From a bacterium (GTDB lineage Bacteria; Myxococcota_A; UBA9160; UBA4427): 37,433 bases of DNA. The position numbers and the translations under genes are program-made. Shown here piece by piece: positions 20,002-25,760 of the stretch. The stretch is taken from the NCBI GenBank assembly GCA_030432735.1, contig JAUIMK010000008.1, positions 1 through 37,433 of the forward strand, read 5' to 3'. Every line of letters starts with the position of its first letter. Position 1 is the first letter of the stretch. The notes under the pieces were generated by a model, which was not told the DNA's origin, made no database searches, and saw only the letters and a list, made by a program, of their open reading frames with translations.

Positions 20002-20059
20002 CCCCGGCGCGCCGGATCCTGCGTCGCCGCCACGCGCGCGAGTGCTGTACCCTCGGCGC

Positions 20060-22759
20060 GTGACGAAAACCGCCGCCCCCCGACTGGTCGTGATCGATGG
20101 CGCGAACGCCATCTATCGCGCGTTCTTTGCGATTCCCAACCTGCGCGCGCCCGACGGCACGCCGACGAACGCGGCCTACGGCTTCGCGACGATGCTCGCG
20201 AAGGTGCTCCGGGAGGAGCAGCCGACCCACGTGGCCTACGCCGCGGATCCCCGGGGCGGCTCGTTCCGCAAGGCGCTCTACCCCGAGTACAAGGCCGGGC
20301 GCGACAAGCAGCCCGAAGACCTGAGCGCCCAGCTCCCGCTGGTCGCCGAGCTCTGCGAAGCGTTCGGTGTGAAGCAGCTCGAGGTCCCCGACTTCGAGGC
20401 GGACGACGTGATCGCGAGCCTCGTCGCGACGGCGCCGGCGGGCGCGGAAATCTGCATCGTCTCGACGGACAAGGACCTGATGCAGCTCGTCCGTCCCGGG
20501 GTCGAGCTGCTCGACAGCGCCAAGGACCGGCGCATCGATGCCGCCGTCGTCGAAGAGCGATTCGGGGTGCCGCCGGAGCAGCTGCTCGACGTCCGGTCCC
20601 TGGTCGGGGATCCCTCGGACAACATCCCCGGCGTGAAGGGGATCGGCGAGAAGGGCGCGGCGAAGCTGATCCGCGAGTTCGGGGATCTCGAAGCGCTCCT
20701 CGAGCGGGCCGAAGAGGTGAAGGCGAAGCGCGCGCGAGAGGGGCTCCTCGAGCACGCGGAGGATGCGCGGCTCTCGCGGAAGCTCTCGACGCTCCGCGAC
20801 GACGTTCCGCTCGAGCCGGACTGGTCGGGGCTCGAGGTCCAGGCGCCCGACGAGGACCGCTTGCGCGAGCTCTACACGAAGCTCGGCTTCACGCGGCTGC
20901 TCGACACGCTGGCCGGCGAGGGGAAGGACGGGGGCGCGGCGGACGGCGGGGCGGCGACCGAGGTCGCGACGACCTTCGTCCGCGACGAGGACGCCCTCGA
21001 GTCCGCGCTCGAAGACCTCTCCGGAGCAGAGCGGATCGCGGTCCACGCGGTGACGTCGGAGGGGACGGCCGTCTCGCGTCGCCTGCTCGGGCTCGCGCTC
21101 TGCGGGGAAGAGGGGAAGGCGAGCTACCTCGCGATCGCGGGCGAGGGCCTCCTCGACCGCGAGGGCGTCGCGCCCGAGGCGGCGGCGGGCGCGCTCCGGA
21201 GGCTCCTCGTCGAGGGCGACGCCCGGTGGTCGGCCTTCGATACGAAGGGAACGCAGAGCCTCTTCGCCGAGCTGGGACAGGAGCTCCCGCTGCCGGAGGT
21301 CGACGTCGAGGTCGCGGGTCACATGATCGACGCGACCGGCGCGCATCAGCTCGGGCCGCTCGCGATGGAGCATCTCGGTCGCAGCGTGGCGTCCTGGGAG
21401 GAGCTCGCGGGACGGGGCGCGAAGGCGAAGTCGGTGGAGGAGCTCGGGATCGAGGCCGTCGGCCCCTGGGCCGGTGCGCAGGCGTCCGCCGTCCTCGCGC
21501 TCGGCGAGGTGCTCCGGGCGCGGCTCGACGCCGACGAGCTGATCTCCCTCTTCGACGACGTCGAGATTCCGCTGACCGCGGTGCTCTCGAAGATGGAGCG
21601 CGCCGGCGTCCGGATCGACGAAGACCACCTCTCCCATCTGTCCAGCGAGTACGAGGCGGAGCTCGCGCGGATCGAGAAGGAGATCCACGAGCTCGCCGGG
21701 GAGGAGTTCCTGATCAGCAGCCCCAAGCAGCTCTCGGTGATCCTCTTCGAGAAGCTCGGACTTCCGATCCTGAAGAAGACGAAGACCGGCTACTCGACCG
21801 CGGAGAGCGTGCTCGAGCAGCTCCAGGAACACCACCCGCTGCCGGGGCGGATCCTCGCCTGGCGCAAGCTCGCGAAGCTGAAGAGCACCTACATCGACGC
21901 GCTGCCTCCGCTCGTCGACGAGCGGACCGGGCGCATCCACCCGAGCTTCCACCAGCTGGGCGCGGCGACCGGGCGCCTCTCCGCCTCGAACCCGAACGTC
22001 CAGAACATCCCGATCCGGGGCAGCGAGGGGGCGCGCATCCGCGAAGCCTTCGTGCCCGCGGAAGGCCGGGTGCTGCTCGCGGCGGACTACTCCCAGGTCG
22101 AGCTGCGGATCGTGGCCCACTATTCGGGAGACCCGTCGCTGATCGATGCGTTCAAGCACGGGCACGACATCCACCGACGCACCGCCGCCGAGGTCGCCGG
22201 AATCGATCTCGAGGACGTCGACGACGAGATGCGCGCCCGCGCGAAGGCCGTGAACTTCGGGATCATCTATGGCTCTTCGGCGTTCGGCCTCGCCCAGCAG
22301 CTCGGCATCGCCGCGGGAGAGGCACAGGAGACGATCGACGCCTACTTCGAACGCTATGCCGGCGTGCGCCGCTTCCTGGACGAGACGAAGGCGCAGGCAA
22401 AGAAGGACGGCTTCGTGCGGACCTGGATGGGGAGGCGGCGCTACCTCCCCGATCTGAACTCGCGGAACCGGGTGCTGCGTCAGGCGGCGGAGCGGATGGC
22501 GACGAACACGGTGATCCAGGGGACCGCGGCGGATCTGATCAAGAAGGCGATGGTCGACGTCGACCGGGCCCTCGAGGCGGCGGATCTCTCCGCCACGATG
22601 ATCATGCAGGTCCACGACGAGCTCGTCTTCGAGACGCCCGAGGAGGAGCGCGAGGCGCTCACGCGCCTCGTCATCGAGCAGATGGAGCAGGTGGCGGAGC
22701 TCTCGGTGCCGCTCACGGTGGACGTCGGATTCGGGATGAACTGGCGGGACGCGCACTAG
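20060..22759 (+). CDS. polA: DNA polymerase I
   Basis: 5' nuclease domain (LVVIDGANAIYRAFF, DFEADDVIASL, GVKGIGEKGAAKLI) and polymerase motifs (AADYSQVELRIVAHYSGD, RAKAVNFGIIYG, MQVHDELVFE). GTG at 20060. Confidence 0.95.
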   Translation: MTKTAAPRLVVIDGANAIYRAFFAIPNLRAPDGTPTNAAYGFATMLAKVLREEQPTHVAYAADPRGGSFRKALYPEYKAGRDKQPEDLSAQLPLVAELCEAFGVKQLEVPDFEADDVIASLVATAPAGAEICIVSTDKDLMQLVRPGVELLDSAKDRRIDAAVVEERFGVPPEQLLDVRSLVGDPSDNIPGVKGIGEKGAAKLIREFGDLEALLERAEEVKAKRAREGLLEHAEDARLSRKLSTLRDDVPLEPDWSGLEVQAPDEDRLRELYTKLGFTRLLDTLAGEGKDGGAADGGAATEVATTFVRDEDALESALEDLSGAERIAVHAVTSEGTAVSRRLLGLALCGEEGKASYLAIAGEGLLDREGVAPEAAAGALRRLLVEGDARWSAFDTKGTQSLFAELGQELPLPEVDVEVAGHMIDATGAHQLGPLAMEHLGRSVASWEELAGRGAKAKSVEELGIEAVGPWAGAQASAVLALGEVLRARLDADELISLFDDVEIPLTAVLSKMERAGVRIDEDHLSHLSSEYEAELARIEKEIHELAGEEFLISSPKQLSVILFEKLGLPILKKTKTGYSTAESVLEQLQEHHPLPGRILAWRKLAKLKSTYIDALPPLVDERTGRIHPSFHQLGAATGRLSASNPNVQNIPIRGSEGARIREAFVPAEGRVLLAADYSQVELRIVAHYSGDPSLIDAFKHGHDIHRRTAAEVAGIDLEDVDDEMRARAKAVNFGIIYGSSAFGLAQQLGIAAGEAQETIDAYFERYAGVRRFLDETKAQAKKDGFVRTWMGRRRYLPDLNSRNRVLRQAAERMATNTVIQGTAADLIKKAMVDVDRALEAADLSATMIMQVHDELVFETPEEEREALTRLVIEQMEQVAELSVPLTVDVGFGMNWRDAH

Positions 22760-22934
22760 TCCTCCGCCTGCGGGCGCTCGGCGGGGGACCTCCGGCTGCT
22801 CCGCCGCCTGCGGGCGCTCGGCGGGACCTCCGGCTGCTCCTCCGCCTGCGGGCGCTCGGCGGGGGACCTCCGGCTGCTCCGCCGCCTGCGGGCGCTCGGC
22901 GGGACCTCCGCTGCTCCTCCGCCTGCGCGTGCGG
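22760..22934. repeat. GC-rich minisatellite of about 4.5 copies of a ~40-nt unit immediately after the polA stop
   Basis: Units 22760-22799 (40 nt), 22800-22837 (38), 22838-22877 (40, identical to unit 1), 22878-22914 (37), plus a degenerate partial copy. Core tcc(t/g)ccgcctgcgggcgctcggcggg(gg)acctcc(g)gctgc. Confidence 0.92.
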
Positions 22935-22948
22935 TGCGGGGGAGATGC

Positions 22949-23121
22949 CGGGGGTTCCCCGCGGGAGCCCTGTTGGGCGGGAGAACGAAAAAAAACGACG
23001 GGGAGACCGAGTTTTCGTGACACGTTGCCCGGGAAGCGCCCACTTCCCATGTACAAAAGCCGAATTCCCCTTCCCAGGGATGCCCGGAACACTCCTCGTG
23101 GGTGTTCCGGGTTTTGCTTTT
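22949..23121 (+). ncRNA. Candidate structured RNA or polA 3' UTR element with consecutive hairpins ending in an intrinsic terminator
   Basis: Hairpins: cgggg/ccccg; gccc-tgtt-gggc; acgaaaa/ttttcgt; gggaag-cgccca-cttccc; cccggaacac/gtgttccggg followed by TTTTGCTTTT. The segment is visibly more AT-rich than its surroundings. Confidence 0.4.
23083..23121 (+). terminator. Rho-independent terminator
   Basis: Perfect 10-bp stem cccggaacac (23083-23092) / gtgttccggg (23102-23111) followed by ttttgctttt. Confidence 0.85.
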
Positions 23122-23185
23122 GGGGCCTCGCCTCGGGCCCTCGCCTGGTGGGCGCCTGCTCGACCACAGGCCCGTCCGCGCGGTG

Positions 23186-24190
23186 TCAGGCGCGCGCGAA
23201 GACGCTGACCGCGAAGCGTTCTCCCGCGTCCCGGATCTGCGCCTCGACGCGCAGGGAAGCGCCTCTCGCGAGCGCGTCGATCTCTTCGGGACCGTATTTG
23301 TGGGAGTCCTCGGTGTGGATCCGCTCGCCGGCCCGAAAGGCGACTTCGAGGTCGGCACCCGGGATCTCGACCCGTTGAGCGGCCAGGCTCTCGAGGAAGC
23401 TCTTCACCGCGCCCGAGTCCTCGTCGTAGCGGACGACGTGCCGGAACGCGTCGAGATCGAAGTTTCCGCCGAGCTCGCGGTTGATGCGTGCGAGCAGGTT
23501 GAGGTCGAAGCGGGCGGTGACCCCGTCGGCGTCGTCGTCGGCCGCCTCGAGCACCGCCGGATCCTTTCGCAGGTCGATGCCGACGAGCAGGCGATCGTCG
23601 GTCCGCATGTCGCGCGCGATGCGCGAGACGAACGCCGCGGCCTCGGGCTTGCTCAGGTTGCCGATCGAAGAGCCCAGCCAGAGCGTGAGCGTCGGGCCGA
23701 GATCGAGCGCGCGAAGCTCGGCCAGGCCCGCTTCGTACTCGGCGAGGGCGGGTCGGATCTCGAGCTCCGGGTGATCGCGCCCGAGCCGCTCGATGCTCTC
23801 CTCGAGGGCGGCTCGGGACACGTCGATCGGCGCATAACAGAGCCCGTCGCGGGTCTCGAGGAAGGCGCGGAGCAGGACCTCGGTCTTGATCGCGCTGCCG
23901 CTCCCGAGCTCGACGATCGTCTCGATCCGCGGATGGCGCACGGCCAGGTCGGGGGCGGCGCGTTCGAGGATCTCCGCCTCGGCGCGCGTCAGGTAGTACT
24001 CGGGGAGCTCGCAGATCTGCTCGAAGAGGCGCGAGCCTTCGGCATCGTAGAAGAACTGGCTCGGGAGCGTCTTGCTCGCGCGCGAGAGACCCTCCCGGAC
24101 CGCCTCGCCGAAGTCCAGCTGCGCAGAATCTGGCGGGACCTCGATCCAGTCGATGTCGACGCTTCGATCGGGGGACGCGTTGGATCGCAT
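23186..24190 (-). CDS. egtD: L-histidine N(alpha)-methyltransferase EgtD-like
   Basis: KTLPSQFFYDAEGSRLFEQICELPEYYLTRAEAEIL, ELGSGSAIKTEVLLRAF, LTLWLGSSIGNLSKPEAAAFV, LVGIDLRKDPAVLEAADDDADGVTARF. Confidence 0.92.
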   Translation of the reverse strand: MRSNASPDRSVDIDWIEVPPDSAQLDFGEAVREGLSRASKTLPSQFFYDAEGSRLFEQICELPEYYLTRAEAEILERAAPDLAVRHPRIETIVELGSGSAIKTEVLLRAFLETRDGLCYAPIDVSRAALEESIERLGRDHPELEIRPALAEYEAGLAELRALDLGPTLTLWLGSSIGNLSKPEAAAFVSRIARDMRTDDRLLVGIDLRKDPAVLEAADDDADGVTARFDLNLLARINRELGGNFDLDAFRHVVRYDEDSGAVKSFLESLAAQRVEIPGADLEVAFRAGERIHTEDSHKYGPEEIDALARGASLRVEAQIRDAGERFAVSVFARA

Positions 24191-25052: not shown

Positions 25053-25760
25053 ATGACCGTTTCGACCCTGAGCCCCGCATCCGCTTCGATGGCCACGCGA
25101 CCGGCGGGCACTGCCGCGCCGATCGCATCGACGGGCCAGGCCGCCCCGGTCCTGTCCATCACGACGGGCCGCCCGGTGGATCCCGCCGTCGCGGAACGCC
25201 GCCGCGAGGACCAGGCGCTCGTGCGCGAGATCCTCGCCGGCTCGGCCGAGGCGTTCGGCCGCCTCTACGAGCTCTACCACCAGCGCCTCTATCGCTTCGC
25301 CGTGAAGCGGCTCGGAGACGCGACGGAGGCCGAGGACGTCGTGCAGGACGTCTTCCTCGAGGTCCACAAGTGCCTGGGCTCCTGGGAGGGACGCTCCTCG
25401 CTCCTGACCTGGATGTTCGGCATCGCCCACCACCAGCTCTGCCGCCGCTTCCGCAAGAAGACGCCGATCGGCGTCCCGATCGAGCAGCTCGAGGCGCAGC
25501 CGCCGGTCGCGCCGGAGGCGCCCTCGGATCGTCGGGTCGAGGCGGCGCGGATGCTCGAGGTCTGCGCGGACGTCCTCGACGCGGAGGTGTCCGAGGCGCA
25601 GCGCGAGATCTTCGACCTCTACTACGGCGAGGGGCACCCGACCAAGGTGATCGCCGAGGAGCTCGGCAAGTCGAATCAGGCGGTGAAGATCAGCCTCTTC
25701 CGAACGCGCCGAGCCATGGAGGCCCGCCTCGAAGAGCACGGCATCCAGGCGAGCGCCTGA
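25053..25760 (+). CDS. ECF-family RNA polymerase sigma factor with long N-terminal extension
   Basis: AFGRLYELYHQRLYRFAVKRLGDATEAEDVVQDVFLEVHK (region 2) and KVIAEELGKSNQAVKISLFRTRRAM (region 4). GGAAGGAG SD. Confidence 0.9.
   Translation: MTVSTLSPASASMATRPAGTAAPIASTGQAAPVLSITTGRPVDPAVAERRREDQALVREILAGSAEAFGRLYELYHQRLYRFAVKRLGDATEAEDVVQDVFLEVHKCLGSWEGRSSLLTWMFGIAHHQLCRRFRKKTPIGVPIEQLEAQPPVAPEAPSDRRVEAARMLEVCADVLDAEVSEAQREIFDLYYGEGHPTKVIAEELGKSNQAVKISLFRTRRAMEARLEEHGIQASA

What the first reader, a model, noticed from the sequence alone, without database searches (positions are those of the whole stretch)
22949..23121. Candidate unannotated structured RNA downstream of polA
Between polA and the convergent egtD lie five consecutive short inverted repeats, the last a perfect 10-bp GC-rich stem followed by TTTTGCTTTT (a textbook + strand terminator about 360 nt past the polA stop). 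The 22980-23080 stretch is AT-richer than the flanks and codes for nothing convincing. The position recalls enterobacterial Spot 42 (spf) downstream of polA, but I see no sequence similarity. No convincing promoter was identified, so it could equally be a long polA 3' UTR.
Basis: partly seen in the sequence, partly recalled or inferred. Interest (0 to 1): 0.6.

Follow-up and report, generated by a model that had tools for sequence, protein, structure and literature searches.

The report
Small RNA restraining its sigma factor
Downstream of polA lies a real, previously undescribed small regulatory RNA found throughout one order of environmental Myxococcota; it appears to be switched on by a particular sigma factor (a gene activator) and its invariant core is complementary to the translation start of that same sigma factor's messenger RNA, which suggests a feedback brake on a cell-surface programme.

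Summary
The RNA is about 70 nt, window ~23053-23121 (+). Its promoter, TGACAC-N16-CCACTTC at 23018-23046, was missed. The hairpins upstream of 23013 are not conserved.

A covariance model finds the RNA in 66 of 80 genomes of the window's order (Myxococcota; includes MAG UBA9160), 1-5 copies, sometimes in tandem. It is absent from 11 genomes of the sister order; phylum-wide, only terminator look-alikes turn up elsewhere. A 15-nt core (TCCCCTTCCCAGGGA) is invariant and the terminator stem covaries strongly. Rfam has no match.

The same promoter precedes PEP-CTERM surface-protein genes, comM, and one ECF sigma gene ("ECF-P", 23 of 30 orthologs). ECF-P and the RNA co-occur. The RNA's core and 5' arm are complementary to the ECF-P ribosome-binding site and start codon (z about 8.6; control genes at or below 1). 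In the window's genus the pairing uses the genus-specific 5' arm instead.

Best explanation: ECF-P activates the RNA, which blocks ECF-P translation, a negative feedback loop working without Hfq (absent in 60 of 60). It is not Spot 42 and not a polA 3' UTR. Everything is computational; no transcript has been measured.

The parts
20042..22759 (+). polA (DNA polymerase I), conserved upstream neighbour of this RNA copy; not part of the RNA
   Evidence: ORF 905 aa; polA next to the RNA in 28 loci of the order
23018..23023 (+). -35-like box TGACAC of the RNA promoter
   Evidence: consensus [TC]G[AC]CAC, with CAC invariant in 79 of 79 homologs; only such promoter in the window
23040..23046 (+). -10-like box CCACTTC, spacer 16
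   Evidence: AC invariant at its centre in 79 of 79; spacer 16 in 64 and 17 in 14
23053..23121 (+). the small RNA (about 69 nt); start inferred from the -10 box, end at the terminator T tract
   Evidence: covariance-model match 23046-23121, E 1.9e-12; start inferred, not mapped
23055..23065 (+). single-stranded 5' arm AAAAGCCGAAT (genus-specific form), predicted to pair with the ECF-P start region
   Evidence: mean duplex -16.6 versus -11.5 kcal/mol for shuffled leaders in 8 genomes of the genus
23066..23080 (+). invariant core TCCCCTTCCCAGGGA; predicted small hairpin CCCU[UCCC]AGGG (23068-23079) and main pairing region
   Evidence: identical in 60 of 60 aligned members; complementary to ECF-P ribosome-binding sites
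23082..23121 (+). intrinsic terminator: GCCCGGAACACTCC...GGGTGTTCCGGGT plus T-rich tail
   Evidence: 10 of 12 pairs with changes on both sides, covariation score 0.411 versus 0.128 shuffled
23186..24190 (-). egtD-like gene, convergent downstream neighbour; not part of the RNA
   Evidence: ORF 334 aa; neighbour in only some relatives

Best explanation
The feature is a trans-acting small RNA gene of about 70 nt with its own alternative-sigma-type promoter and intrinsic terminator, the polA-linked copy of an order-wide family. An ECF sigma factor (called ECF-P here) transcribes it together with PEP-CTERM surface-protein genes, comM and its own gene. The RNA's 5' arm and invariant core (AAGCCNAAUAUCCCCUUCCCAGGG) pair with the Shine-Dalgarno to start-codon region of the ECF-P mRNA (typically CCUGGGAAGGGGGA...AUGGCU) and block its translation, giving a negative feedback loop. 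Shown by sequence: family, promoter, covarying terminator, shared promoter, co-occurrence, complementarity. Inferred: that ECF-P recognises this promoter, that pairing occurs, and that it represses.
For: Family: blastn matches in 58 of 61 relatives; model R1 in 66 of 80 order genomes and 0 of 11 sister-order genomes; phylum hits outside the order are plain terminators. Structure: terminator covariation 0.411 versus 0.128 shuffled and 0.076 or less when slid. Promoter: strict two-box element in 79 homologs; a similar pattern hits 58 times versus 5 for the reversed control in 30 genomes. Downstream genes: PEP-CTERM proteins, comM and ECF-P, with the motif upstream of 23 of 30 orthologs; dprA 0 of 30. 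Co-occurrence RNA/ECF-P in the order: both 65, RNA only 1, ECF-P only 5, neither 9 (Fisher p 8e-8, not corrected for phylogeny). Target: complementarity to ECF-P leaders 19.0 versus 15.1 shuffled (60 shuffled means never above 16.7), mostly ending 4-8 nt before an in-frame start; dprA, comM and PEP-CTERM leaders z 1.0 or below. Native RNA-mRNA pairs -26.4 kcal/mol, dprA control -22.8, partner permutation p 0.0007; mRNAs of the window's genus prefer RNAs of that genus by about 5 kcal/mol. Own genome: AAAAGCCGAAUUCC x AAGGAUUUCGGCUUUG. No Hfq in 60 of 60.
Against: No expression or interaction data; the genomes are metagenome assemblies. Among genera other than the window's, native and swapped partners differ little (p 0.09), as expected if the core is invariant but also weaker evidence of co-evolution. 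Some genomes show weak or no site (L257, L282; G005). Three of the window genus' ECF-P orthologs, including the window's own genome (L264), show no promoter box in the region examined. Five genomes have ECF-P without a detected RNA and one the reverse. Sigma-promoter specificity rests on association. The exact 11-mer target is not enriched genome-wide beyond the RNA genes, so further targets are unproven.
Confidence: 0.68

Rival explanations
1. The RNA is a regulatory RNA of the same ECF-P regulon, but its main job is to repress (or activate) many envelope or metabolic mRNAs through its C-rich core, as MicA/RybB, FoxI or GsrN do; pairing with ECF-P is secondary.
For: C-rich core; multi-copy with divergent 5' arms in tandem arrays, which suits several targets; some regulon leaders other than ECF-P carry CUGGGAAGGG (L249, L247, L136).
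Against: PEP-CTERM leaders as a group z 1.0, comM and dprA about 0.8; the 11-mer CTGGGAAGGGG is not enriched outside the RNA genes (133 hits, about 35 of them RNA genes, versus 92 control hits).
Confidence: 0.2
2. The conserved complementarity runs the other way: the RNA is a decoy or activator that opens or protects the ECF-P leader, raising sigma-factor synthesis (positive feedback, GsrN-like).
For: GsrN, an ECF-controlled C-rich sRNA, activates katG by pairing with its leader (PMC5869019).
Against: The predicted duplex covers the Shine-Dalgarno sequence and often the start codon, which normally blocks initiation.
Confidence: 0.08
3. It is a polA 3' UTR with an ordinary terminator, not a separate RNA.
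For: It follows polA on the same strand with a good terminator.
Against: Own conserved promoter; identical core at loci away from polA; tandem arrays; in many families an ECF sigma, an anti-sigma and a secreted-protein gene separate polA from the RNA.
Confidence: 0.02
4. It is a CsrA-binding sponge or another protein-sequestering RNA.
For: Multi-copy small RNA with a conserved GGGA.
Against: One GGA per copy, next to or inside a stem, no repeated GGA loops; complementarity to ECF-P is unexplained on this view. CsrA occurrence was not tested.
Confidence: 0.02

Closest known systems
StsR of Rhodobacter sphaeroides (PMC8307010)
   Same: 72-nt sRNA made under alternative sigma factors (RpoHI/RpoHII) that pairs near the start of an ECF sigma mRNA (rpoE) in a negative feedback loop
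   Different: Indirect loop (RpoE to RpoHII to StsR), pairing starts 10 nt downstream of the GUG, Hfq-bound; here the pairing covers the Shine-Dalgarno to start region of the presumed direct activator, and there is no Hfq
FoxI / FoxJ of Fusobacterium nucleatum (PMC11005410)
   Same: ECF (sigmaE)-dependent sRNAs with C-rich seeds in a bacterium without Hfq; overexpression lowers rpoE
   Different: Main targets are envelope mRNAs; unrelated phylum; no antisense match to the rpoE ribosome-binding site described in the passages read
GsrN of Caulobacter (PMC5869019)
   Same: sRNA under an ECF sigma (sigmaT), pairs with mRNA leaders through G-rich target stretches
   Different: Activates katG; no feedback on sigmaT found there; Hfq-stabilised; Alphaproteobacteria
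Pxr of Myxococcus xanthus (PMC5568312, PMC5684412)
   Same: Myxococcota sRNA with a C-rich stretch and tandem paralogs in some species; no hfq in M. xanthus
   Different: 108 nt with three stem-loops, sigma54 promoter, locus between nla19/pxrR and MXAN_1080, reported from Cystobacterineae only
Spot 42 (spf), enterobacteria
   Same: sRNA gene downstream of polA
   Different: No Rfam match here, different sequence, promoter and predicted target; Hfq absent; many family copies are not at polA

Membership tests
Spot 42 (Rfam spf) | match to the Rfam covariance model | tested here: not met
   no match at gathering score in the window and none with E up to 10 in 22700-23300
Spot 42 (Rfam spf) | position downstream of polA | tested here: met
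   window, and 28 loci with polA; positional resemblance only
Spot 42 (Rfam spf) | Hfq-dependent action | tested here: not met
   no Hfq (PF17209) in 60 of 60 genomes, controls positive
Pxr | sigma54 promoter (GG-N10-GC) | tested here: not met
   promoter is [TC]G[AC]CAC-N16/17-CCAC
Pxr | locus beside nla19/pxrR, three stem-loops of about 108 nt | tested here: not met
   loci are polA/ECF or ACT gene/CoA ligase; about 70 nt with two hairpins; description of Pxr from PMC5568312
ECF-sigma-dependent sRNAs (functional kind) | promoter shared with the sigma regulon and the sigma gene itself | tested here: met
   shared with ECF-P in 23 of 30 orthologs, PEP-CTERM genes and comM; by sequence only
ECF-sigma-dependent sRNAs (functional kind) | transcription depends on the sigma factor | not testable with these tools
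   needs RNA from a cultured relative or a reconstituted system
Trans-acting base-pairing sRNA | conserved region complementary to the target initiation region | tested here: met
   ECF-P leaders 19.0 versus 15.1 shuffled; control leaders z 1.0 or below
Trans-acting base-pairing sRNA | compensatory change between RNA and target across lineages | tested here: inconclusive
   clear for the window's genus (5 kcal/mol preference, overall p 0.0007), weak elsewhere (p 0.09)

The most novel reading that the evidence does not exclude
An order-wide, multi-copy sRNA is the dedicated negative regulator of one ECF sigma factor: it covers the Shine-Dalgarno and start codon of the mRNA of its own activator and so stands where an anti-sigma factor would (none was seen next to ECF-P in the loci inspected), setting the dose of an exosortase/PEP-CTERM surface programme in bacteria without Hfq.
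Probability: 0.45. Interest if true: 0.8.

Novelty: new variant of a known kind. Interest (0 to 1): 0.7.

Why it matters
Little is known about small RNAs in Myxococcota outside Pxr, and here comparative sequence alone yields an RNA family, its promoter, a likely sigma factor, its regulon and a specific target site. If right, it shows a direct sRNA-to-own-sigma feedback without Hfq, and it points to an ECF factor, rather than the known RpoN route (PMC9850573), as controller of PEP-CTERM surface proteins in this lineage. The pairing model makes base-by-base predictions that are easy to test in a laboratory host.

Tried and rejected
Rfam at gathering and relaxed thresholds: nothing. Spot 42 and Pxr membership: rejected (see membership tests). 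Homologs elsewhere in the phylum: G096, G167 and G256 hits turned out to be bare terminators without the core. The RpoE-like ECF that sits between polA and the RNA in many families was first suspected as the cognate sigma; it has no such promoter upstream, so it was dropped for ECF-P. A general competence regulon (suggested by comM) was tested with dprA: 0 of 30 carry the promoter. comM and PEP-CTERM leaders as pairing targets: no excess over shuffles. A first test with automatically chosen ECF-P starts picked wrong starts and gave a diluted signal; it was replaced by promoter-to-gene leaders. Genome-wide excess of the exact 11-mer target: none beyond the RNA genes.

Full report
WHAT IS IN THE WINDOW. 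The terminator is real: a perfect 10-bp stem and a T-rich tail. The 173-nt stretch as a whole folds only slightly better than shuffles (z -1.7). Rfam has no match.

IT IS A CONSERVED FAMILY. A blastn search with window 22930-23135 matched 58 of 61 relatives, and the conserved part was narrow: about window 23013-23115 in the nearest genome, with the best-kept block at 23066-23087. Collecting the matches showed one pattern everywhere: a promoter-like pair, a short A-rich 5' arm (AAAGCCAAATA or relatives), the invariant 15-mer TCCCCTTCCCAGGGA, and a GC-rich terminator. An exact scan of 84,980 named genomes for TCCCCTTCCCAGGGANNCCCG gave 61 stretches. Nearly all are MAGs titled Myxococcota, Myxococcales, Deltaproteobacteria or Proteobacteria, including the MAG UBA9160; two (L040, L088) lack promoter and terminator and are chance.

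STRUCTURE. In 60 distinct members the 12-bp terminator stem has changes on both sides in 10 pairs; the covariation score is 0.411 against 0.128 in shuffles and 0.076 or less in slid controls. The small hairpin CCCU[UCCC]AGGG never varies, so covariation says nothing about it; its invariance fits a pairing seed equally well.

DISTRIBUTION. Covariance model R1 found the RNA in 66 of 80 genomes of the window's order, with one to five matches each, and in none of 11 genomes of the other order in the class. In 284 genomes across the phylum the only hits outside the order, in family f18, are bare terminators. The window's own genome has two copies: 23046-23121 here and contig C332 9139-9212. Some genera carry tandem arrays of four or five. 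Two loci recur: downstream of polA (28 loci), where many families have an RpoE-like ECF gene, an anti-sigma-like gene and a small secreted-protein gene between polA and the RNA; and between a divergent ACT-domain gene and a convergent CoA-ligase gene.

PROMOTER AND REGULON. In 79 homologs the upstream boxes read [TC]G[AC]CAC, 16 (64 cases) or 17 (14) bases, then CCAC[TA]; CAC in the first box and AC in the second never change. This is not a sigma70, sigma54 or RpoE-type consensus. In the whole window the element occurs once, at this RNA. The pattern TGACACN{16,17}CCACWTM occurs 58 times in 30 genomes against 5 for the reversed pattern. Apart from the RNAs the hits precede (i) comM/YifB, in most of 30 genomes examined, followed by a conserved leader; (ii) secreted proteins ending in a PEP-CTERM signal (NCBIfam PEP-CTERM models); and (iii) an ECF sigma factor gene, here ECF-P. 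Of 30 ECF-P orthologs 23 carry the element upstream, against about one expected from the local background. dprA has it in 0 of 30.

CO-OCCURRENCE. Among 80 genomes of the order, ECF-P (E at or below 1e-50) and the RNA are both present in 65, RNA alone in 1, ECF-P alone in 5 (two of them poorly complete) and neither in 9, the last spread over six families. Fisher p is 8e-8; this is not corrected for shared ancestry, and several of the nine are reduced genomes.

TARGET. The reverse complement of the core is CCCTGGGAAGGGGA. ECF-P leaders repeatedly carry CCTGGGAAGGGGGA or a split form (CTGGGA...AGGGGGA) 4-8 nt before the start codon, which is usually ATGGCT. Local complementarity over 23 promoter-to-gene leaders averages 19.0 against 15.1 for dinucleotide shuffles; the highest of 60 shuffled means is 16.7. 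Control leaders show nothing: dprA z 0.8, comM 0.8-0.9, PEP-CTERM 1.0. Genome-matched duplexes run across the Shine-Dalgarno sequence into the start codon, e.g. G055 ACCUUGGGGAAGGGGAGACAUGGCA with AGCCAAUAUCCCCUUCCCAGGGA, and G018 CUGGGAAUUCAGGGGGAUAUGGAUAUGCA with UGCAUCCAAAUAUCCCCUUCCCAG. In the window's genus the mRNA site has changed to (G/A)AGGAUUUCGGCUUUG-type sequences around a probable UUG or GUG start, and the RNA's 5' arm is the matching AAAAGCCGAAUU. There, genus mRNAs prefer genus RNAs (-26.4 against -21.6 kcal/mol), and permuting partners over all 39 genomes gives p 0.0007, although among the other genera alone p is 0.09. The 5' arm by itself beats shuffled leaders in the genus (-16.6 against -11.5).

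MECHANISM. ECF-P transcribes its own gene, surface-protein genes, comM and the RNA; the RNA then covers the ECF-P ribosome-binding site and damps translation. Hfq is absent in 60 of 60 genomes while the positive controls ring, so pairing must be long or use another helper; predicted duplexes of 15-20 pairs fit that. No anti-sigma gene was seen beside ECF-P in nine loci inspected, which leaves room for the RNA as the main brake; this is inference.

WHAT IS KNOWN. ECF-dependent sRNAs with C-rich seeds (FoxI/FoxJ, GsrN) and an sRNA acting on rpoE mRNA (StsR) exist. PEP-CTERM genes were previously tied to RpoN. No paper naming this RNA was found. It is therefore a new family and a new variant of a known kind of regulation.

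LIMITS. No transcript, sigma-promoter or RNA-RNA measurement exists; genomes are draft MAGs; start sites are inferred; counts across related genomes are not independent.

Noticed in passing
L159-L188 (comM loci), e.g. L141, L143, L158: comM/YifB is preceded by the same promoter and a conserved structured 5' leader (GCCCC..CCTNGCGGGGC, then a long stem GGAAGGCAGGG...CCCTGCCTTC) and a hairpin CCGGTCCCGG before the start; 20 leaders align with compensatory changes and no Rfam match. A second candidate RNA element.
   Followed up: partly
window 22745-22939: About five tandem copies of a 40-nt GC-rich unit (GGGACCTCCGGCTGCTCCTCCGCCTGCGGGCGCTCGGCGG) directly after the polA stop; not conserved with the RNA.
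   Followed up: no
L063:2900-4393, L081:2875-4474, L096: In many families polA is followed by an RpoE-like ECF sigma, an anti-sigma-like protein and a small secreted protein without Pfam match (over 30 loci), then the RNA. The ECF's upstream region lacks the RNA's promoter element.
   Followed up: partly
window 25053-25757: Another ECF sigma gene close to this RNA locus, about 31% identical to ECF-P; it lies even closer to the RNA in L010, L014 and L043. Not preceded by the element.
   Followed up: partly
L265, L270, L275, L281, L282 upstream of ECF-P: A palindrome-like CGTCACCGGTGAC-type block abuts the -35 box of several ECF-P promoters, possibly a site for an extra regulator.
   Followed up: no
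L249, L247, L136: A PEP-CTERM gene, an ECF-like gene and one further leader also carry CUGGGAAGGG or UUGGGAAGGG soon after the promoter, so a few extra targets are possible.
   Followed up: partly
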